From NCBI GenBank assembly GCA_903871765.1, contig CAIQIC010000530.1, forward strand, positions 1-32,255: a DNA stretch of 32,255 nt, written 5' to 3'. A program made the translations under genes and the position numbers. The DNA is from an uncultured Lentisphaerota bacterium (GTDB taxonomy: Bacteria > Verrucomicrobiota > Kiritimatiellia > CAIQIC01). This document shows, one piece after another, positions 11,016 through 22,711 of the stretch. The notes beneath the pieces were generated by a model that made no database searches, was not told the origin of the DNA, and saw only the letters and a list, made by a program, of their open reading frames with translations. Each line of letters begins with the position of its first letter. The stretch's first letter is position 1.

Positions 11016-12197
11016 ATGAAAATAAACCATATTCAGCGCTTGTTGACGGTGCCGGAGCGTTCCTTCTTCTTGTTCGGGCCACGGGGCACGGGCAAGAGCA
11101 CTTGGCTCCGGGAACGGCTGCCGGAGGCGCTTTATCTCGACCTCTTGGACGCCTCGCTCTTCCTGGAGCTTTCCCGCAATCCCCACGCTTTGGAGGCCAT
11201 GGCCGGCGACCGGCCGGCGGGCGCGTGGATTGTCATGGATGAGATTCAGAAGATTCCCGCCCTGCTCGACGAGGTCCACCGTCTGATGGAGTTCCGGCGC
11301 TGGAAGTTCGTACTCTGCGGATCTTCGGCGCGCAAGCTCCGCCGCAGCGGGGTGAATCTGCTGGCCGGACGCGCCCTGACGCTCAATCTGGAACCGTTTT
11401 CGTTCGCGGAACTGGGTGCGCAGTTTGATCTGAAGTTTTCCCTCCGGTGGGGACTGTTACCCTTCGTCCAACTCGACCAGGCGCATGCCGCCGGGATTCT
11501 GAGCGCCTATGTGAACACCTACCTCAAGGAGGAAATCCGCGAGGAAGGCCTGGTGCGCAACGTGCCGCCGTTTCTGCGTTTCTTGAACATCGCCGGACAA
11601 CTCAACGGGCAAACGGTCAACGGCCAGAACATCGCCCGCGAAGCCGCCGTCCCGCGCAGCAGCGTGGACACCTACTTTGCAATCCTCACCGATACCCTGC
11701 TGGGGCACTTTCTGCCAGCCTGGCAGCCACGTCTGAAAATCCGTGAGCAGGCGCATCCCAAGTTCTACTGGTTCGATTCCGGTGTGGCCCGCGCGGCCGC
11801 CGGTCTTCACAACGATCCCGCCGACCGGACCTGGCTGGGCTTCGCGCTGGAGACGCTGCTCTTCCACGAACTGCGCGTCTTCAACGAAGTCAGCGGCCGG
11901 CATCGGACCATCGCCTGCTACGGAACGGGCGCCGGGAGCGAGATAGACTTCGTCATCGAGACCCGCAAGGCGCAGGCAGGTTCGCCCCCGCAGGTGGTGT
12001 GCGTGGAAGTTAAGCTGGCCGAACGATGGGATCGCAAATGGGAGCGCGCCATGCGCGATTTGCAGGCTCGTCCAGGCGTCAAGGTGACGCGGATGTTTGG
12101 CGTCTATACCGGCCCGCGCGCCTACCACTATGACGGCCTGGAAGTCCTGCCCGTCCCGCACTTCCTACGGCGTTTGCATCAAGGCGATATATTTTGA
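11016..12197 (+). CDS. AAA_14/DUF4143 family ATPase
   Basis: The 393-residue protein has an N-terminal P-loop domain with Walker A GPRGTGKS (21-28) and Walker B WIVMDEIQ (71-78). These are followed by FVLCGSSARKLRRSGVNLLAGRA (98-120), the sensor and arginine-rich block of the AAA_14 family. The C-terminal DUF4143 domain contains a winged-helix-like stretch (about 190-235). Near the end is a PD-(D/E)XK-like core, GSEIDFVIE (308-316) then VEVK (330-333), which may bind or cut DNA. These ATPases are common, mobile, often single genes; their biology is poorly defined and toxin-antitoxin or defence roles have been proposed. It is monocistronic here, with its own palindromic leader. Its 3' end faces the next gene 10 bases away. 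Confidence 0.9.
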   Translation: MKINHIQRLLTVPERSFFLFGPRGTGKSTWLRERLPEALYLDLLDASLFLELSRNPHALEAMAGDRPAGAWIVMDEIQKIPALLDEVHRLMEFRRWKFVLCGSSARKLRRSGVNLLAGRALTLNLEPFSFAELGAQFDLKFSLRWGLLPFVQLDQAHAAGILSAYVNTYLKEEIREEGLVRNVPPFLRFLNIAGQLNGQTVNGQNIAREAAVPRSSVDTYFAILTDTLLGHFLPAWQPRLKIREQAHPKFYWFDSGVARAAAGLHNDPADRTWLGFALETLLFHELRVFNEVSGRHRTIACYGTGAGSEIDFVIETRKAQAGSPPQVVCVEVKLAERWDRKWERAMRDLQARPGVKVTRMFGVYTGPRAYHYDGLEVLPVPHFLRRLHQGDIF

Positions 12198-13975: not shown

Positions 13976-16900
13976 ATGACCGAGCGCAAGAAAACCGACG
14001 GCGGCGACCTGTTCATCGTGGACAACTCGGATTCCGAGTGGAAGGTCCTGCAATACCTCAAGGAATGGTGCGAAATCGCTCGTGCATTTGACATTGCCAC
14101 CGGATATTTCGAGATTGGATCGCTGCTGGGCCTGGACGGGGATTGGCAGAAGCTGGAGAAGATTCGCATCCTCATGGGCGATGAGGTTTCCCGGCGCACG
14201 CAACAGGCGCTCCTCGCTGGGGTCCGGGAGATTCAAGGCATTCTGGACCAGAGCATCGAGCGGGAGAAAGAGAAGAACGATTTTCTGGCCGGTGTACCGG
14301 CCATCGTGGAGGCTCTGCGGCAGGGTAAAATCGAGTGCCGGGTGTATGCGAAAAACAAATTCCACGCCAAAGCCTATATCACCCACGCCAAGCACGCGGT
14401 CGTCGGCGCCTCGGCGCTGGTCGGGTCCAGCAACTTTACCTTCCCCGGTCTGACGGCCAATGTGGAGTTGAACGTCCAGTTGCGGCGCGAGGTCGCGCAG
14501 CTCCAGGAATGGTATGAACGGCACTGGCTGGAGGCCGAGGATGTCACGGCGGACGTCCTGCGGGTGATCGAGCGTCACATCGCGGAGTATCGTCCATTCG
14601 ATGTGTACGCGAAGGCGCTGCACGAGTTCTTCCGCGGGCACGAGTTGACGGCCGGCGAGTGGGAAACGACCCGCTCGAAGATGTATCCGGTGTTGAGCCA
14701 GTACCAGCGGCAGGGTTACCAATCCCTGATGAGGGTCGCCTCTCAATTCAACGGCGCCTTTCTCTGTGATGGTGTCGGATTGGGCAAGACCTTTGTCGGG
14801 CTGATGCTTATTGAGCGCCTGGTGATGCATGACCGGAAGCGGGTGGCTTTGTTCGTGCCGAAGGCGGCCCGCGCGGATGTATGGGAATCGCACCTGGAGC
14901 GGTACCTGCCCGACTTGAAGGGCAAGAGCTATTCCAACCTGGCGATTTTCAATCACACGGACCTGGGACGCAGCGGGGAGTTCCCGGAGGAATTTCGCCG
15001 GATTGCCGAGCTGGCGGACGTGGTGGTCGTGGACGAGGCGCACCATTTCCGCAATCCAGGGATCAAGGGCGAAGGGGAACGGCGGCCGTCGCGGTATCGC
15101 CTGTTCTTTGACCTTTTGGGCGGCGGCACGGGGCCCAAGCAATTGTTCCTGCTGACCGCCACGCCGATCAACAACAAGCTGGACGACTTCCGGCATATGG
15201 CGGAATTATTCACCCGGCAGCAAGACGACTATTTCAAGGCCCGGCTGGGCATTCATTCCCTGAGGGGGCACTTTGTGCGGATGGAGCGCGAACTCCGCAA
15301 GCAACTATTCCCGGACACGGCAACGCAACTGGAATTGCCAATCGAACTCAATGAGGCCGAGGCGGCTCTGTCGGCGGACGCGATCTTCAAGGCGCTGGTG
15401 GTGCAGCGCAGCCGGGCCTATGTGCAGGCCAGTCAGCGGCAAGAAGGCTGTGGCGAGACCATCTTCCCGAAACGGGCGCCGCCGCGGGTGGTCGGATACT
15501 CGGTCAAAAAGACCTACGGACGGCTGCTCGATTCGGTGGACCGGGCGTTCGGCAAAATTAAACCCCTGTTCATCCTGGGCATCTATTACCCGTTGGCCTA
15601 CTACAAGGGCGCCGAAAAGATTGACCCCCTGCTCGAGAACCGGCAGAAGCAACTGGTGGCCCTGATTCGGACGCAATTCCTCAAGCGTTTCGAGAGTTCC
15701 GCGCTGGCCTTCGGACTTTCCTGCGATCGGCTCCTGCTGCGGCTGTTGACGTGGGTGACGAAACATTCCGAGACCGACGCCGAGCAGCGGCGGCTGGACA
15801 TCTGGCGGCAAAAACATGCGCCGCTGATCGGCTACGTGCAGCAGCAGCAGTTGGAGTTCTGGGGCGAAGAGGACATTGCGGACGCCGACGAGGACGTGAT
15901 CACCGAGGAGATGCTGGAGGACGTGGATAAATTGTCGCGCGAAGATTTCCGGGTGGAGGACATCCTGGCGGACAGTTACGAGGACATGAACCAGGTGGTG
16001 GAGTTTCTTGAGGAAGTCCGCCGATTCGAGCCGAAACACGACGACAAGCTCAAGGCTTTGGTGCAATTGCTGAAGAAGGACACGGTACTCAAGCGGGACA
16101 AGGTTCTGATCTTTTCCGAGTTCGCCGAGACCGCCCGGTATCTGAGGAAGGAACTGCCCGGAAACGGGATCCAGGGGGTCGAAGAAATTGACAGCATGTC
16201 GAAAAAGAACCGGAGCGAAGTGATCCGCCGGTTTGCCCCCTACTACAACGATACGACCAGCGCGGGTTTGGCGGCGGACGGCGCCAGCGAGATCCGGGTG
16301 CTGATCTCCACAGATGTGCTGTCCGAAGGCCTCAACCTGCAGGACGCCACGCGGTTGATCAACTACGATCTGCACTGGAACCCGGTGCGGATCATGCAGC
16401 GCATCGGCCGCGTGGATCGCCGCCTGAACGTGGACATCGAAGCCATGATCGTGCGGGATCACCCCGAGCAAAAGGACCTCCGCGGGCACGTGGCGTATTG
16501 GAACTTCCTGCCGCCGGACGATTTGGATGCCTTGCTGAGGCTGTACACGAAGGTGTCGCACAAGACCCTGCGAATCTCCAAAACTTTCGGGATTGAGGGC
16601 AAAAAACTGCTCAAACCGGACGACGATTACGATGCCCTCAAGGATTTCAATCACGCTTACGAGGGCACGGTTTCGGCGGTGGAGCAGATGCATCTGGAAT
16701 ATCAGCAGTTGCTGGCCGATCATCCCGGTCTCATCGCGCAGCTCGAAGCCCTGCCGGGCCGGGTGTTCAGCGGCAAGGTTCATCCCCAGCCCGGCACCAG
16801 GGCGGTGTTTTTCTGCTACGCGCTGCCGGCGGTCGCGCCCACCGCGAGCCAGCAAGACGGCTGCGAGGCGACCTGGAGCACGGAACTCGGCACCGCGGCG

Positions 16901-17128
16901 TGGTATCTCGCGGATCTGGCCTCCGGCCGCATCAGCGCGGAGCCCACCGAGATCATCGGGGTCATCCGCTCCACGCCGGAGACGCCGCGGGTCACGGCCA
17001 TCGCGCCGTCAACGCTGGCGGAAATCCGCGCGACCGTGGAACGGCACATCAAGAATACGTATCTGAAACAGGTCCAAGCGCCTATCGGAGTGAAGCCGGT
17101 CCTGAAAGCGTGGATGGAGTTGGGGTGA
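13976..17128 (+). CDS. PLD-like nuclease domain fused to SNF2/DEAH-type helicase
   Basis: The protein is 1050 residues. Residues 1-200 form a phospholipase D-like domain with one HxK motif (H130, K132 in KFHAKAYITH) and GSSNFTFPG at 150-158. One copy per chain suggests a dimeric active site, as in PLD-type nucleases. The helicase follows: Walker A DGVGLGKT (265-272, usually DEVGLGKT), motif II DEAH (353-356), motif III LTATP (393-397), and a C-terminal RecA domain with FSEFAETARYL, STDVLSEGLNLQ and QRIGRVDRR (about 775-816). Such PLD-helicases occur in defence islands, often paired with methyltransferases, and probably translocate on DNA and cleave unmodified targets. GGAGGGGG upstream fixes the start. 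It precedes the XRE/ImmA/methyltransferase operon by 79 bases. DISARM was considered but its other core genes are absent. Confidence 0.9.
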   Translation: MTERKKTDGGDLFIVDNSDSEWKVLQYLKEWCEIARAFDIATGYFEIGSLLGLDGDWQKLEKIRILMGDEVSRRTQQALLAGVREIQGILDQSIEREKEKNDFLAGVPAIVEALRQGKIECRVYAKNKFHAKAYITHAKHAVVGASALVGSSNFTFPGLTANVELNVQLRREVAQLQEWYERHWLEAEDVTADVLRVIERHIAEYRPFDVYAKALHEFFRGHELTAGEWETTRSKMYPVLSQYQRQGYQSLMRVASQFNGAFLCDGVGLGKTFVGLMLIERLVMHDRKRVALFVPKAARADVWESHLERYLPDLKGKSYSNLAIFNHTDLGRSGEFPEEFRRIAELADVVVVDEAHHFRNPGIKGEGERRPSRYRLFFDLLGGGTGPKQLFLLTATPINNKLDDFRHMAELFTRQQDDYFKARLGIHSLRGHFVRMERELRKQLFPDTATQLELPIELNEAEAALSADAIFKALVVQRSRAYVQASQRQEGCGETIFPKRAPPRVVGYSVKKTYGRLLDSVDRAFGKIKPLFILGIYYPLAYYKGAEKIDPLLENRQKQLVALIRTQFLKRFESSALAFGLSCDRLLLRLLTWVTKHSETDAEQRRLDIWRQKHAPLIGYVQQQQLEFWGEEDIADADEDVITEEMLEDVDKLSREDFRVEDILADSYEDMNQVVEFLEEVRRFEPKHDDKLKALVQLLKKDTVLKRDKVLIFSEFAETARYLRKELPGNGIQGVEEIDSMSKKNRSEVIRRFAPYYNDTTSAGLAADGASEIRVLISTDVLSEGLNLQDATRLINYDLHWNPVRIMQRIGRVDRRLNVDIEAMIVRDHPEQKDLRGHVAYWNFLPPDDLDALLRLYTKVSHKTLRISKTFGIEGKKLLKPDDDYDALKDFNHAYEGTVSAVEQMHLEYQQLLADHPGLIAQLEALPGRVFSGKVHPQPGTRAVFFCYALPAVAPTASQQDGCEATWSTELGTAAWYLADLASGRISAEPTEIIGVIRSTPETPRVTAIAPSTLAEIRATVERHIKNTYLKQVQAPIGVKPVLKAWMELG

Positions 17129-17153: not shown

Positions 17154-17189
17154 TTGCACCTCGAAAAGTGTTATAGTATATTATAACAC
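17154..17189 (+). promoter_or_regulatory. Promoter with palindromic operator for the XRE-ImmA-methyltransferase operon
   Basis: TTGCAC (17154-17159) and TATATT (17177-17182) are separated by exactly 17 bases. A 22-bp palindrome, GTGTTATA (17168-17175) and TATAACAC (17182-17189) around GTATAT, covers the -10 box and part of the spacer. A repressor bound there would block RNA polymerase, so autoregulation by the XRE protein encoded 18 bases further on is the simple reading. GGAGGG at 17195-17200 then sets the GTG start. Confidence 0.75.
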
Positions 17190-17207: not shown

Positions 17208-17588
17208 GTGAAAAATGCGTTCGGTGAGTTTGTTCGCGAGCTGCGGTTGGCGCGGGGTATGAGCATACGGACCTTTGCGCGCGAAGTGGGGTTGCAGCCG
17301 TCGAACTACTGCAACATGGAGAATGGTGTGCTGGCCCCGCCGCCGGCGGATGGCGTGGAGCGGATTGCCGCGGCCCTGCAAATGAAAACGGGGTCGTCAG
17401 ATTATGTGAAACTGCTCGATCTGGCGGCCAAGGTCCGCCGTGAAGTGCCGGCCGATATCGCCAAGCTGGTGCGGGAGAACGCGTTGATCCCTGCACTGCT
17501 GCGCACCGTGGAGAGCGAGCGGGTGAGCGAGGAGAAGCTGCGGGGCATTATCGAGGACCTGCGCCATGGCCGCCATCAAGGCACCTGA
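17208..17588 (+). CDS. XRE-family helix-turn-helix repressor
   Basis: The 126-residue protein has an N-terminal XRE/Cro-type HTH at about 8-57, with FVRELRLARGMSIRTFAREV and then GLQPSNYCNMENG. A helical C-terminal half may dimerise or contact the protease. The GTG start is well supported by GGAGGG 7 bases upstream. The gene overlaps the ImmA-like gene by 23 bases, the classic repressor/antirepressor-protease arrangement known from ICEBs1 ImmR/ImmA and DdrO/IrrE. By analogy the protease would cut the repressor under a stress or infection signal and release the operon that includes the methyltransferase. The palindrome over its own promoter agrees with this. The trigger is unknown. Confidence 0.9.
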   Translation: MKNAFGEFVRELRLARGMSIRTFAREVGLQPSNYCNMENGVLAPPPADGVERIAAALQMKTGSSDYVKLLDLAAKVRREVPADIAKLVRENALIPALLRTVESERVSEEKLRGIIEDLRHGRHQGT

Positions 17589-18180
17589 TTTCCGATTGTA
17601 TGAGTTGGAGCGCAAGGCCGAGGATGCCATCCGGCGCTTCCCCCAGTGTGCAACCGGGTTGCGCGTGGATATCGAGCTGCTGATCGAGCTGAACGGTGTG
17701 CGCATTGAGGCTTTTCAGGATCTTCGCCGCAAATGGGATACCTATGCCTTTCCGGACGTCACGGGGCATTTCATCTTCGTGGACGCCGGTCTGATGGATG
17801 ACCCGGGCGGGGGGAAAAAATTGCGCTTCACGCTGGCGGAGGAGTTCGCGCACATCCTTGTTCATACGCCGCTGTTCACGAAATGCCGGACACCCGAGGA
17901 CCGCTTGTCGTTGCAGCGACACCTGGGCGAGGACATCGTTGACCGACTGGAGCGGCAAGCACGGGCGCTCGCCGGGGCGCTGCTGATGCCGGCAGCAACG
18001 TTCGACCCGCGCGTCGAGGAAGTCGCCACGGCCTGCCGGAATGCGCAGGGGGAGATTGATGTCGAGAAACTCGCGCAGGCACTGGCCCACGATTTCGATG
18101 TGAACTATCGCGCCGCTCGCAAGCGGTTACGCATGCGCGGATATCACCGCGAGGAACGGTTGGGCCTGAATCTGGACTGA
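17566..18180 (+). CDS. ImmA/IrrE-family metallopeptidase-like protein
   Basis: The 204-residue protein shows the ImmA/IrrE layout. A helix-rich start with VDIELLIELNGVRIE leads to the metal-site region RFTLAEEFAHILVH (about 88-101). Further on is LERQARALAGALLMP (about 127-141), equivalent to the family motif that supplies the third ligand and precedes LLMP. In the active-site helix the usual HExxH first histidine is replaced by glutamate (EEFAH). I recall family members with EE at this spot, so the protein may still bind metal or may be a regulatory homologue. The N-terminus overlaps the repressor gene by 23 bases, so translation is coupled. It should act on the XRE protein; a stress sensor function is inferred only from the family. 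Confidence 0.88.
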   Translation: MAAIKAPDFRLYELERKAEDAIRRFPQCATGLRVDIELLIELNGVRIEAFQDLRRKWDTYAFPDVTGHFIFVDAGLMDDPGGGKKLRFTLAEEFAHILVHTPLFTKCRTPEDRLSLQRHLGEDIVDRLERQARALAGALLMPAATFDPRVEEVATACRNAQGEIDVEKLAQALAHDFDVNYRAARKRLRMRGYHREERLGLNLD

Positions 18181-18201
18181 TGGGCCGTGGATGGGGGCCG
18201 C

Positions 18202-21200
18202 ATGATCAAAGATCCCGAACGCCTGCGTGCGATCAAGTCGCTGCCACAACTGCTCGCCTACCTCCGCGACGATCTCGAATGGCCTATCGGCACCGAGAGC
18301 GTGGACGACCTCACATTCGACTATCGGCCCGACGAACTCGGTTTGAACGCCGAGGCGGCCGTCCGGATCAAGGAAATCAAGCAAATCCGCCCGCTCGCCG
18401 GCAATCAGCCGTGGGGCATCTTCTGGATCAATTTCGAGAAGAAGCGCCTGCCGGTGGTGATCATGCGCCGCATTCTGCGCGCCCTCGTCTTTAAGAAACG
18501 CGCCTCCGCCAACCAGGTAGAACGCAAAGCGTGGCAAATCAGCGACCTGCTCTTCATCTCCGCCTACGGCGAAGATACCGACCGCGCCATCACACTGGCG
18601 CACTTCGTCGAGCGCCAGGATTACGGGAACCTCGCCGAACTGCGCGTTCTCGGCTGGGACGATGACGACACCCCGCTCAAGTACGATTACATCATTCACA
18701 CGCTGGAGGACAAACTCCACTGGCGCGAAGATTTCGAGCGCGACGCCGACTTCTGGCGGCAGACCTGGCAGGCGGCCTTCACGCTCCGCCACCGGGAGGT
18801 CATCACGACCTCCAAGGAACTGGCGATGGCGATGGCCCACCTCGCCAGGCGCATCCGGGGCCGCGTCCGGTCCGTGCTCCGCTACGAAGACGGCTTTGGC
18901 GGTATCCGCAAGCTCCAGCGCGCCTTCCAGCAGGCCTTGATTCACGACCTGACCGACGACGACTTTGCCGATATGTGGGCGCAGACCATCACCTACGGCC
19001 TGTTCTCCGCCGCCGTCTCCCGCCCCGCCGGCATCCACAGCGGCAATCTTGTGGATATGGTCCCGGTGACCAATCCCTTCCTCCGCGACATGCTTGCCAC
19101 CTTCCTCAACCTCAGCGGGCGCAAGGGCCGGATTGACTTCGACGAACTCGGCATCCAGGAGGTTGTGGACCTGCTCAACAGCGACGACACCCATCTCGAC
19201 GCCGTCCTGCGCGACTTTGGCAACCGCACCCGGCAGGAAGACCCGGTTATCCACTTCTACGAAGATTTTCTCACGCAATACGACAAACAGCGCAAAATCC
19301 AGCGCGGCGTCTTCTATACCCCGCAACCCGTCGTCTCCTACATCGTCCGCAGCGTCCACGAACTGCTCCAGACCGAATTCGGCCTGGAAGACGGCCTCGC
19401 CGCCACCGTCACCTGGGGCGAAATGCTCAAACGCAACCCCGGCCTGAAGCTACCGCCGCTTACCGACGGAACCGGCGAGCAACGCACCATTGACCCCAGC
19501 GAACCCTTCGTCCTTATCCTCGACATTGCCACCGGCACCGCCACCTTCATCATTGAAGTGATTGATGTGATCCACAAGACAATGGTTGCCAAGTGGAAGA
19601 AAGCCGGTAAGACCGACACCCAGATTCACGACCTCTGGAACGATTATGTTCCTCAACACCTTCTCCCCCGCGTGTACGGTTTCGAGTTGATGATGGCCCC
19701 CTACGCGATCGCCCACATGAAAGTTGGCCTCAAACTCGCCGAGACCGGCTACAAGTTCCGCTCCAACGAACGCGCCCGCATCTACCTCACCAACACCCTC
19801 GAACCCAAAGTCCGGCAACTCCCCGCCATCGGCTTTGAAGCCCTCGCCCATGAAGCCAAAGAAGTGAACGAGGTCAAATGGTATAAGCGGTTCACGGTAG
19901 TCATCGGCAACCCACCTTACTCTAAAATCTCTGCGAACCTGTCGCCTGAAGCGCGTGCAATTATTGAACGGTATCGATTTGCCGATGGTGCAAGAATCAA
20001 AGAGCGTGGGGCGCTCCAGTTTGAGATCAATCTCCAAGATGACTACGTGAAATTTCTACGCTCATCTGAAGTATATGTGGAGAAGGCAACGACTGGTGTG
20101 TTGGGACTGATCACAAATAACGGTTACCTGAGCACGCCGACACTTCGCGGGTTGCGCGACTCCCTCCTTGAGACCTTCAGCACCATTTCCTTACTAGACT
20201 TGCACGGCCACCTTGCGAAGGGAGAACTCGGTCCGGACGGCAACGCCGAGGAGAATGTGTTCGATATTTTGCAGGGCGTCGCAATTATTCTAGGTCGGCT
20301 GAATGACGGTCGCCGTGAACATGCGTCGGTGTTTCACACCGACCTGTTTGGTTCTCGGGAGAAGAAATATTCGTATTTGAAGGAGCACACTCTTTCTACC
20401 ATGACTCAATCTCGCTTGAGTCCGCCGCCGCCATTTTACCTTTTCGTCCCACACGACGCAGACTTGGAAGCGGAGTGGATGAAATCTGCCGGCCTTACGG
20501 AACTCTTCCCAAAAAACAGTGCCGGTATCATCACCGCGAGAGATGGTCTGGTCATTGCCGAGGACAAAAGACGACTGTCCGAGCGGATGGAAAACTTCAG
20601 CATTGCTAAAGGAAGTGAGGGCTCAGTTTACGAAGAGTTCAACTTCTCAGCCAGCAAACGTTTCGATCTTCGAAAAGCGCAAGAAGAACTTAGGAAATTA
20701 ACGTCTTTCAGTACGCCAATCCGCCGACTGTTGCATCGGCCATTCGACTCACGCTACATTTTCTTTGACTCAAACGTCGTATGGAGTTTATCTCGACCAA
20801 TGGCAGACCAATTAGTTTACGGTCGCAATATTGCCTTGGTAGCGACCCGGCAAGTGACCCGCCCGCAATTTGAGCACGCTTTTGTCTCAAGGTACATGAT
20901 CGAAATCAAAGCCTGCTCGCACGACCGCAACACACAGATATTCCCTTTGTTTCTCAAGCACAAGGCGTATGGACTAAACATCGAGGCCGAGAGCACTCCA
21001 AACGTGAGTGGAAAGCTCTTCTCAAACCTCGCCAATACGTTGGGTTTACAGACGGTTACCCATTGTGAGGGTCACGGAAAGGATGCCGAACTTACACCCC
21101 TGAAACTTTTCGATTATGCCTACGCAATTCTGTATTCACCGGCATACAGGAAGCGTTACTTCGAGTTCTTGAGAAGTGATTTCCCGCGCCTGCCGTTAAC

Positions 21201-21825
21201 CCCCCGGCTCGACCTGTTCCGCGCCCTCGCGGCGCTTGGCGGCGACCTCGTCGCCCTGCACCTGCTCGAATCGCCCCAACTCGACCACCTCATCACCAAA
21301 TTCATCGGCGACCCCAAGCAGGAGATCGAGAAAATCGCCTTCACTGTAGGCCGCGTCTCCGACGCGGCGCCTTCCGTAGAAGCGACGTCCCGTCGCTTTT
21401 CCGTCACGGGGCGGGACGCCGCGTCCACGACCGCCGCGCCCGCTACCGGCACCGTCTGGATTGACAAGACGCAGACCACCGGCTTCCAGGGCGTCCCCGA
21501 CAACGTCTGGAATTTCCACATCGGCGGCTACCAAGTCTGCGAGAAATGGCTCAAAGACCGCAAGGGCCGCACCTTGTCCAAAGACGACATGGCCCACTAC
21601 CAGAAAATCGTCGTTGCTCTGACCGAAACCATCCGCCTTATGTCCGAAATTGACAAGGTGATCGAAGCCCACGGCGGTTGGCCCGGGGCGTTTGCGTCTA
21701 CGACAGCGCAATCTGAGCGTGAAAAACCTGCCGACCTGCCCATGGCGGCTGAGGGCCGTGCTAGCTACTCGACGGTGCGGGCTGAGGACTCTGGCACAAT
21801 GCGAAATCGTGATGAGGCTGATTGA
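18202..21825 (+). CDS. Type ISP-like adenine-specific DNA methyltransferase with specificity domain
   Basis: The protein is about 1207 residues. The first 390 residues match the N-terminal region of long N6-adenine methyltransferases of this class, with no helicase motifs. The catalytic domain has FYTPQPVVSYIV, motif I LDIATGTATF (around D441) and motif IV VVIGNPPYS (NPPY at 570-573). The target-recognition region follows. The end has TQTTGFQGVPDNVWNFHIGGYQVCEKWLKD, as in LlaBIII-type C-terminal domains. It should methylate adenine in a non-palindromic site, protecting host DNA from the PLD-helicase. The start at 18202 is preferred on homology (MIKDPERLRAIKSLPQLL); 18187 is the alternative. 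Base composition drops sharply between about 19921 and 21180. A palindrome array adds about 30 residues before TQTTGF, and the last 40 residues are unlike the family. Confidence 0.9.
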   Translation: MIKDPERLRAIKSLPQLLAYLRDDLEWPIGTESVDDLTFDYRPDELGLNAEAAVRIKEIKQIRPLAGNQPWGIFWINFEKKRLPVVIMRRILRALVFKKRASANQVERKAWQISDLLFISAYGEDTDRAITLAHFVERQDYGNLAELRVLGWDDDDTPLKYDYIIHTLEDKLHWREDFERDADFWRQTWQAAFTLRHREVITTSKELAMAMAHLARRIRGRVRSVLRYEDGFGGIRKLQRAFQQALIHDLTDDDFADMWAQTITYGLFSAAVSRPAGIHSGNLVDMVPVTNPFLRDMLATFLNLSGRKGRIDFDELGIQEVVDLLNSDDTHLDAVLRDFGNRTRQEDPVIHFYEDFLTQYDKQRKIQRGVFYTPQPVVSYIVRSVHELLQTEFGLEDGLAATVTWGEMLKRNPGLKLPPLTDGTGEQRTIDPSEPFVLILDIATGTATFIIEVIDVIHKTMVAKWKKAGKTDTQIHDLWNDYVPQHLLPRVYGFELMMAPYAIAHMKVGLKLAETGYKFRSNERARIYLTNTLEPKVRQLPAIGFEALAHEAKEVNEVKWYKRFTVVIGNPPYSKISANLSPEARAIIERYRFADGARIKERGALQFEINLQDDYVKFLRSSEVYVEKATTGVLGLITNNGYLSTPTLRGLRDSLLETFSTISLLDLHGHLAKGELGPDGNAEENVFDILQGVAIILGRLNDGRREHASVFHTDLFGSREKKYSYLKEHTLSTMTQSRLSPPPPFYLFVPHDADLEAEWMKSAGLTELFPKNSAGIITARDGLVIAEDKRRLSERMENFSIAKGSEGSVYEEFNFSASKRFDLRKAQEELRKLTSFSTPIRRLLHRPFDSRYIFFDSNVVWSLSRPMADQLVYGRNIALVATRQVTRPQFEHAFVSRYMIEIKACSHDRNTQIFPLFLKHKAYGLNIEAESTPNVSGKLFSNLANTLGLQTVTHCEGHGKDAELTPLKLFDYAYAILYSPAYRKRYFEFLRSDFPRLPLTPRLDLFRALAALGGDLVALHLLESPQLDHLITKFIGDPKQEIEKIAFTVGRVSDAAPSVEATSRRFSVTGRDAASTTAAPATGTVWIDKTQTTGFQGVPDNVWNFHIGGYQVCEKWLKDRKGRTLSKDDMAHYQKIVVALTETIRLMSEIDKVIEAHGGWPGAFASTTAQSEREKPADLPMAAEGRASYSTVRAEDSGTMRNRDEAD
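21345..21420. repeat. Array of three small palindromes inside the methyltransferase gene
   Basis: Three triloop hairpins follow one another: CCGCGTC/GACGCGG (21351-21367, loop TCC), AGCGACG/CGTCGCT (21381-21397, loop TCC) and GGCG/CGCC (21410-21420, loop GGA). The first two are each preceded by a GTAG word (21346 and 21376), suggesting a unit with that head. They are translated in frame as a serine/alanine/arginine-rich linker that family members appear to lack. They look like REP-type extragenic elements captured by a coding sequence. Confidence 0.65.
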
Positions 21826-21841
21826 GAGTCGAAAATCATCA

Positions 21842-22711
21842 ATGTCAGCAAGAGGTGGTCTAGTGGCTCTGGGCTCAAATAAAATCATCGCAGAAGTAAA
21901 GAGGTTGATTGCCCAAATCGGCCTGAATTCCATATCCATATCGGTCAAATATGTTTTGGCCCTTCTATTCTTTGTCGGTGTTGCCGCTATGCTTTTTCAT
22001 ATTGGCCAAGGCAAGACGTTAGTTGGTGGCGTCTTGACGGCGCTTTTCTTCTACATATTCAGTCAAATACGCAACATTTATCTTGAGGCAAAGCTCAAGG
22101 CGGCGCTGGTGCACGCAATAACGGGATTATATACGACATTTGATGATCTGCGCATTACCTTTCGAAACACGACTTCTGTGCCCATTACGATTCGTGAGAT
22201 TAGATTCCGCAAGTCGGCCAAAGCAAAAACAGGTGCCAGTTCCATAACGCGACTCCGATACATCAGCCCTACATATCACGTCATCAACAGGGATCCGGAT
22301 GAAGAAATGGGGGATTTTTTTCCGCATGATGTCGAGCTTCCATGGATAGTTCGGGCTGAGATGCATGAGATCGCTGAGGGCGAAAACCTTACGTCATTTC
22401 CTGATCCAGGGGATTTTCATGTTATTCCGCCAGAGGCTGGGGCAACCTATGCGCTCTGGTTCATGGCCTGCAAGCAATATCTAGAGGATGACATTGAGGA
22501 AATGCTCATGATCGTTGAGTATCCAACACTGCTGGGGAGACCGAGGGTAGCGTCTTTCCGTCTTTCCAAAAGACAATCGGAATTTGTGCAACGTTTTCTC
22601 CGTGAACAAATGCCGTTGATGGAAAAACAGGCAAATGAAATGTTGGAACATTTCCAGCAGACGGCCGCAAGAGGCAAAATGGAGCTGCCGGGGCCAATAA
22701 TTCGTAAATGA
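21842..22711 (+). CDS. Unrecognised membrane-anchored protein linked to the restriction-like island
   Basis: From the ATG at 21842 the protein has 289 residues; an ATG at 21812 overlapping the methyltransferase stop is an alternative. Residues around 28-71 form two closely spaced hydrophobic helices, VKYVLALLFFVGVAAMLFHI and LVGGVLTALFFYIFSQI. A soluble domain of about 210 residues follows, with a beta-rich start (LRITFRNTTSVPITIREIRF) and a helical charged end (FVQRFLREQMPLMEKQANEMLEHF). I recognise no domain. Its codon use is clearly more AT-rich than the genes on either side, which suggests transfer. Position and orientation place it at the end of the XRE-ImmA-methyltransferase operon. It could be an effector or sensor of that system or an unrelated passenger. 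Confidence 0.75.
   Translation: MSARGGLVALGSNKIIAEVKRLIAQIGLNSISISVKYVLALLFFVGVAAMLFHIGQGKTLVGGVLTALFFYIFSQIRNIYLEAKLKAALVHAITGLYTTFDDLRITFRNTTSVPITIREIRFRKSAKAKTGASSITRLRYISPTYHVINRDPDEEMGDFFPHDVELPWIVRAEMHEIAEGENLTSFPDPGDFHVIPPEAGATYALWFMACKQYLEDDIEEMLMIVEYPTLLGRPRVASFRLSKRQSEFVQRFLREQMPLMEKQANEMLEHFQQTAARGKMELPGPIIRK

What the first reader, a model, noticed from the sequence alone, without database searches (positions are those of the whole stretch)
19921..21180. Methyltransferase gene is a mosaic: specificity region has a different base composition
Codons are GC-rich with C or G in third position up to the NPPY motif (19909-19920) and again from about 21181. Between them the sequence shifts to many A/T-ending codons. 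The borders coincide with the end of the catalytic core and the start of the conserved C-terminal domain. This suggests that the target-recognition part was swapped by recombination, a way to change methylation specificity.
Basis: partly seen in the sequence, partly recalled or inferred. Interest (0 to 1): 0.62.

Follow-up and report, generated by a model that had tools for sequence, protein, structure and literature searches.

The report
Swapped target-recognition cassette in DNA methyltransferase
A bacterial DNA-methylating defence enzyme carries a middle part (the part that chooses which DNA sequence to mark) with a different ancestry from the rest of the gene, so this enzyme family seems to change its target by exchanging that part like a cassette; the trick is known from other restriction enzymes, but the two-gene system that uses it here looks little described.

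Summary
Third-position GC is 0.81 before the NPPY motif, 0.56 between 19921 and 21180, and 0.83 after it. The shift exceeds 300 shuffles and seven other genes of the window.

The nearest relative of the flanks (L062) is 77% identical in the N part and 23% in the recognition core; another relative (L012) is 63% and 60%. A three-sequence breakpoint test, independent of composition, puts the junctions at 19882-19926 and 21175-21213. Trees of the N part and the middle reject each other's groupings. The four closest backbone pairs all carry dissimilar cassettes.

Two corrections. The GC3 dip occurs in 28 of 28 sampled homologues, so it does not date or prove a swap here. The right border lies inside the Pfam Type_ISP_C domain, near the core/guide boundary of the recognition domain.

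The gene is not a complete Type ISP enzyme. It is the methyltransferase of a two-gene system with a PLD(HKD)-SNF2 helicase directly upstream in all 12 loci, and it has an N-terminal domain unknown to Pfam, PADLOC and the PDB. Target exchange is known in restriction-modification; this carrier is a variant.

The parts
18187..21825 (+). DNA N6-adenine methyltransferase with Type ISP-like recognition domain, 1212 aa (alternative start ATG 18202)
   Evidence: Pfam N6_Mtase, Eco57I and Type_ISP_C; best structure matches DrdV, LlaBIII, LlaGI
18205..18783 (+). N1 domain (residues 7-199): shared with other methyltransferases that accompany the same helicase; proposed helicase docking part (inferred)
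   Evidence: no Pfam, PADLOC or PDB-fold match
18787..19908 (+). Backbone: helical region and SAM-binding half of the methyltransferase; nearest relative over most of it is L062
19909..19920 (+). NPPY, methyltransferase motif IV; left anchor of the cassette (triplet breakpoint interval 19882-19926)
19921..21180 (+). Exchanged cassette: rest of the methyltransferase domain plus TRD core, GC3 0.555, nearest relative L012
21178..21201 (+). DFPRLPLT, conserved right anchor (triplet breakpoint interval 21175-21213)
21202..21690 (+). Conserved C-terminal part, corresponding to the guide subdomain of Type ISP TRDs, GC3 about 0.83
   Evidence: mapping with PMC4872093 (inference)
21345..21399 (+). In-frame insert made of two dispersed palindromic repeats (21345-21368 and 21377-21399), absent from the homologues aligned
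   Evidence: low model confidence there
13976..17128 (+). PLD(HKD)-SNF2 helicase, 1050 aa, presumed restriction subunit
   Evidence: motifs HAK, GSSN, GVGLGKT, DEAH; upstream of the methyltransferase in all 12 loci
17208..18180 (+). HTH regulator (17208-17588) and M78 (ImmA/IrrE-like) peptidase (17566-18180), probable regulatory pair; an accessory, not in most related loci

Best explanation
The gene is the modification and target-recognition subunit of a two-gene, ATP-dependent restriction-modification-like defence system whose presumed restriction subunit is the PLD-SNF2 helicase upstream. Recombination between related alleles at two conserved anchors, NPPY on the left and DFPRLPLT on the right, replaced the roughly 420-codon stretch between them. 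The replaced stretch carries the specificity loops, while the SAM-binding and catalytic motifs and the N-terminal part were kept. Shown: mosaic ancestry, position of the junctions, recurrence in the family, conserved pairing with the helicase. Inferred: that the exchange changed the methylated motif, that the helicase restricts DNA lacking that mark, and that homologous recombination was the route.
For: GC3 step. Identity N/TRD/C: L062 77/23/71%, L012 63/60/65%. Discordant trees with AU tests. Triplet breakpoints 19882-19926 and 21175-21213, LR 164 against a maximum of 27 in 1000 permutations. Nearest-relative scan. The four closest backbone pairs (L064/L101, L014/L109, window/L062, L012/L066) all have 23-25% identical cores, whereas window/L012 and L063/L100 share cores at 60% and 53%. 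Anchors map to the loop-bearing part of LlaBIII/LlaGI (PMC4872093). Helicase next to the methyltransferase in all 12 loci and in the same five of 346 genomes.
Against: No recent event was caught: the best cassette relative is 60% identical, so donor and date are unknown. The C-segment tree is unresolved and weakly favours window+L012 over window+L062 (p 0.058), so the exchange might run further right. The N part and the helicase are themselves mosaic, so a single clean swap is a simplification. Methylation and restriction were not measured.
Confidence: 0.85

Rival explanations
1. No exchange: the recognition domain evolves very fast in place under diversifying selection, and lower codon selection there gives low GC3.
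For: The dip is present in 28 of 28 relatives and correlates with the backbone GC3 (r 0.84), as an intrinsic cause would give. The recognition part is the least conserved part everywhere.
Against: Core identity does not follow backbone identity: 23% at 77% backbone (L062) but 60% at 63% (L012). AU tests reject congruence both ways. Identity changes abruptly at the anchors. Variable sites in the backbone show no drop in GC3.
Confidence: 0.07
2. The composition dip and the swap are separate things: exchange happens, but low GC3 is an intrinsic, selected or structural property of recognition regions and not a trace of the donors.
For: All 28 members are lower, whatever their cassette, and GC3 of the two parts correlates. 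Donors drawn at random would sometimes be higher in GC.
Against: No mechanism is known to me; the drop is larger and starts earlier (at NPPY) in the subfamily with cassette exchange. A donor pool of generally lower GC would also explain it.
Confidence: 0.4
3. Assembly chimera: two strains' alleles were joined inside the gene in this metagenome-assembled genome.
For: The genome is fragmentary (573 contigs, 82% complete).
Against: The reading frame is open through both junctions. Independent assemblies show the same composition step, with the left edge near NPPY in most. The cassette aligns without a break to L012, an independent record.
Confidence: 0.03

Closest known systems
Type ISP restriction-modification enzymes (LlaGI, LlaBIII)
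   Same: Gamma-class N6 methyltransferase order (SAM motif, NPPY, then C-terminal TRD), Type_ISP_C domain, fold match; high variability in the second half of the methyltransferase domain and the TRD is also reported for them (PMC4872093)
   Different: No nuclease or helicase matched in this chain; a separate PLD-SNF2 helicase gene is upstream, and the chain starts with the N1 domain
Type IIG enzymes (DrdV, TaqII/TaqIII)
   Same: PADLOC's best models are Type IIG; DrdV is the top fold match; TaqII and TaqIII are also similar outside the TRD and differ in it (PMC5587805)
   Different: No nuclease domain recognised in the chain; linked helicase gene
TRD exchange and domain movement in restriction-modification genes (HsdS and others in Helicobacter pylori)
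   Same: Conserved flanks, exchanged recognition part, expected change of specificity (PMC3983042, PMC3077401)
   Different: Here the unit starts inside the catalytic domain right after NPPY, and the evidence comes from distant genomes rather than strains of one species
DUF499-centred BREX-related systems, Type 2 (PMC12839542)
   Same: HKD nuclease-SNF2 helicase fusion plus an N6 methyltransferase
   Different: No DUF499 ATPase or DUF3780 found among the neighbours scanned; the TRD is C-terminal here, while BR methyltransferases have DUF1156 and a nested TRD
DISARM (DrmD, DrmC, DrmMI)
   Same: Helicase part resembles DrmD, PLD part weakly DrmC
   Different: PLD and SNF2 are one chain far below the NCBIfam cut-offs; no DrmA or DrmB gene recognised next to it

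Membership tests
Type ISP R-M enzyme | Nuclease, SF2 helicase-like ATPase, coupler, methyltransferase and TRD in one chain | tested here: not met
   No nuclease or helicase family in the chain; residues 1-331 match nothing in Pfam
Type ISP R-M enzyme | Type ISP C-terminal specificity domain | tested here: met
   PF18135 E 1.3e-71, above cut-off; fold match LlaBIII/LlaGI E about 1e-34
Type IIG R-M enzyme | Nuclease domain fused to the methyltransferase | tested here: inconclusive
   N1 model is of medium confidence (pLDDT 72) and has no PDB match below E 0.09; a very divergent nuclease is not excluded
TRD exchange in R-M genes | Recognition part with an ancestry discordant with both catalytic and terminal parts | tested here: met
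   Discordant with the N part; the C part is unresolved by tree, but identity and GC3 agree with the backbone
TRD exchange in R-M genes | Changed methylation motif after the exchange | not testable with these tools
   Needs methylome data
DUF499-centred BREX-related Type 2 | DUF499 ATPase and DUF3780 in the locus | tested here: not met
   Not among the window genes scanned nor the neighbours scanned in L062, L063, L064, L066, L101; not every small ORF was scanned
DISARM | DrmA, DrmB and DrmC core next to a methyltransferase | tested here: not met
   No such genes among the window proteins scanned with PADLOC; DrmD/DrmC matches are partial and far below cut-off
Two-gene PLD-SNF2 plus N1-methyltransferase system (proposed here) | Adjacent helicase and N1-bearing methyltransferase on one strand | tested here: met
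   12 loci; same five of 346 genomes; N1 with other methyltransferase types in L067 and L068

The most novel reading that the evidence does not exclude
A so far undescribed family of two-gene defence systems (PLD-SNF2 helicase plus N1-domain methyltransferase) varies its target at two levels: by exchanging a cassette that starts right after the catalytic NPPY motif, drawn repeatedly from a pool with lower GC than the recipients, and by exchanging the whole methyltransferase (Type ISP-like, TaqI_C-like or PglX-like) behind a common N1 docking domain.
Probability: 0.35. Interest if true: 0.7.

Novelty: new variant of a known kind. Interest (0 to 1): 0.5.

Why it matters
It gives natural, sharply bounded junctions for exchanging DNA specificity in Type ISP-like methyltransferases, a class of enzymes in which engineering new specificity is described as unaccomplished (PMC4872093). 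It also shows that a low-GC recognition part is a property of the whole sampled family (28 of 28), so a composition dip over a recognition domain should not by itself be read as a recent transfer. Why it is always lower is an open question that larger samples can test.

Tried and rejected
Composition as sole evidence: rejected, because all homologues share the dip. Conservation or amino-acid content as cause of the dip: rejected. A hot spot of synonymous-site conservation at the right anchor, suspected from the codon view: the scan found the excess spread over several conserved backbone stretches (for example residues 361-385, 1009-1040, 1129-1150), not peaked at the junctions. Donor search in plasmids: no cassette relative above about 36% identity among the listed hits. 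Viral contigs: only distant relatives of the N part (35-38%). Paralogue in the same genome as donor: only a 31% match. The N1 domain by fold: no PDB match below E 0.09.

Full report
WHAT WAS CHECKED. The gene at 18187-21825 encodes a 1212-residue protein with Pfam N6_Mtase, Eco57I and Type_ISP_C domains. Its third-codon-position GC falls from 0.81 to 0.555 between 19921 and 21180 and returns to 0.83. The statistic on a comparable grid is 81 against a maximum of 24 in 300 shuffles, and at most 27 for seven other genes of the window. At fourfold sites the three values are 0.91, 0.55 and 0.89. Within the N part, variable and conserved sites do not differ.

RELATIVES. Full-length relatives came from genome contigs (L012-L014) and from the window's own order, class and phylum. 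Ten complete members were aligned. The closest backbone relative of the window, L062 (genome G004, same family), is 77% identical over residues 9-575, 23% over 701-960 and 71% over 999-1165. L012 is 63%, 60% and 65%. L012's own closest backbone relative is L066 (75%), with a 25% core. The pairs L064/L101 (83% in N) and L014/L109 (80%) also have cores at 23-24%. A second shared core is L063/L100 (53%, N 68%).

TESTS OF MOSAICISM. Trees: the N part rejects window+L012 (p-AU 2.4e-4). The middle rejects window+L062 (3.6e-6) and L012+L066 (4.7e-5) and supports window+L012 at 100/98. For two other pairs (L064+L101, L014+L109) the middle tree does not reject the backbone grouping (p 0.2 and 0.1), because their cores are too divergent to place. 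The C part is unresolved. Using only sites where the window matches exactly one of L062 and L012, the best breakpoints lie at 19882-19926 and 21175-21213; 76%, 10% and 62% of the sites match L062 in the three parts, LR 164 against a maximum of 27 in 1000 permutations. The choice of this triplet was made after seeing the identities, so the p-value is optimistic, but the margin is large. The test does not use composition and lands on the same borders. A nearest-relative scan shows L062 nearest over most of the N part, L012 from about residue 569 to 930, and others afterwards.

WHERE THE BORDERS LIE. The left border is in or just after NPPY, the methyltransferase motif IV; the right border is at DFPRLPLT. 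By the alignments, NPPY is LlaBIII 1018-1021 and the right anchor is LlaBIII 1432-1437 (positions counted by hand along the printed alignment). PMC4872093 gives recognition loops I (1017-1027), II and III in the methyltransferase domain, IV-VI (between 1223 and 1374) in the TRD, and the core/guide border at 1440-1448. The cassette therefore holds loops II-VI and most of loop I, and leaves out the guide. This mapping is an inference from alignment.

THE DIP IS GENERAL. In 28 of 28 relatives the recognition part has lower GC3 than the N part, and the two values correlate (r 0.84; values). The drop is larger in the window's subfamily (0.24) than in the rest (0.15). In the subfamily it usually begins near NPPY, while in much of the wider family it begins near residue 700. 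The dip is thus not evidence of a recent event in this gene. Repeated import from a lower-GC pool would explain it; so might an unknown constraint on this region. I cannot decide between these.

THE SYSTEM. A PLD-SNF2 helicase gene (13976-17128; HAK, GSSN, Walker A and DEAH motifs) lies upstream of the methyltransferase on the same strand in all 12 loci with enough flank, sometimes with small genes between. In the class, the same five of 346 genomes hold both the helicase (E below 1e-100) and the N1 domain (a sixth N1 match is a short, weak fragment). One of these five, G161 (L067), and G240 (L068) have the helicase with a TaqI_C-type or PglX-like methyltransferase that shares only the N1 domain (residues 7-199) with the window protein. 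N1 has no Pfam, PADLOC or PDB-fold match. I infer that N1 docks the methyltransferase to the helicase. The helicase tree differs from the N-part tree, so recombination affects the whole locus, not the cassette alone.

MODEL. AlphaFold2 gives pLDDT 80 overall and mostly 80-95 in the methyltransferase and TRD. The best PDB matches are DrdV, LlaBIII and LlaGI. The in-frame repeat insert has the lowest confidence.

MECHANISM. The most likely picture: relatives of the gene meet by horizontal transfer; the conserved stretches around NPPY and DFPRLPLT allow recombination; the exchanged stretch brings a whole set of recognition loops at once; and because the helicase gets its target from the methyltransferase chain, modification and restriction would change together, so that the cell does not cut its own DNA. 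The last step is inference, by analogy with Type ISP enzymes where one TRD serves both activities (PMC4872093).

VERDICT. A real mosaic, correctly read in its main point. The phenomenon is known in restriction-modification (PMC3983042, PMC3077401, PMC5587805; PMC4872093 for variability in Type ISP). The carrier is a variant not matched as a whole by any library used here: not Type ISP in full, not DUF499-BREX-related, not DISARM. I found no description of this gene pair in the papers searched, which covers only the open-access library.

Noticed in passing
21345-21399: Two dispersed palindromic repeats inserted in frame in the methyltransferase: TGTAGGCCGCGTCTCCGACGCGGC (30 near copies in the genome, none of the reversed control) and TAGAAGCGACGTCCCGTCGCTTT (4 copies). 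The aligned homologues lack the roughly 33-residue insert. Resembles in-frame palindromic elements such as those of Rickettsia (from memory, not tested).
   Followed up: partly
17168-17189: Perfectly adjacent 11-nt inverted repeat GTGTTATAGTA/TATTATAACAC in an AT-rich gap upstream of the HTH gene: probable operator of the HTH-M78 pair.
   Followed up: partly
18205-18783; L067:6998-7600; L068:6302-6900: N1 domain shared by three different methyltransferase types next to the same helicase; unknown to Pfam, PADLOC and PDB folds.
   Followed up: partly
about 18900-19090 (residues 239-300): A second, smaller tract inside the N part where L012 and L066 are nearer to the window than L062, without a GC3 change.
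   Followed up: no
L062 and L066, methyltransferase C-terminal part: 86-90% DNA identity after residue 1001 against about 60-75% in the N part: another recombination trace.
   Followed up: no
L014:7983-11837: The methyltransferase of this relative carries an extra C-terminal Peptidase_S24-like domain (LexA-like).
   Followed up: no
L065 (G177:C232): This copy of the methyltransferase is interrupted at about residue 506 (two open frames of 580 and 636 residues): a decayed copy or an assembly error.
   Followed up: no
21863-22711: Low-GC (about 0.48) open frame downstream with no family match.
   Followed up: no
11016-12197: AAA_14/DUF4143 ATPase, matching the PADLOC candidate family PDC-S01.
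   Followed up: no
L067:5394-6998; L068:4127-5320: Between helicase and methyltransferase: a Schlafen AlbA_2 protein in one locus and a YhcG-type PDDEXK nuclease in the other.
   Followed up: no
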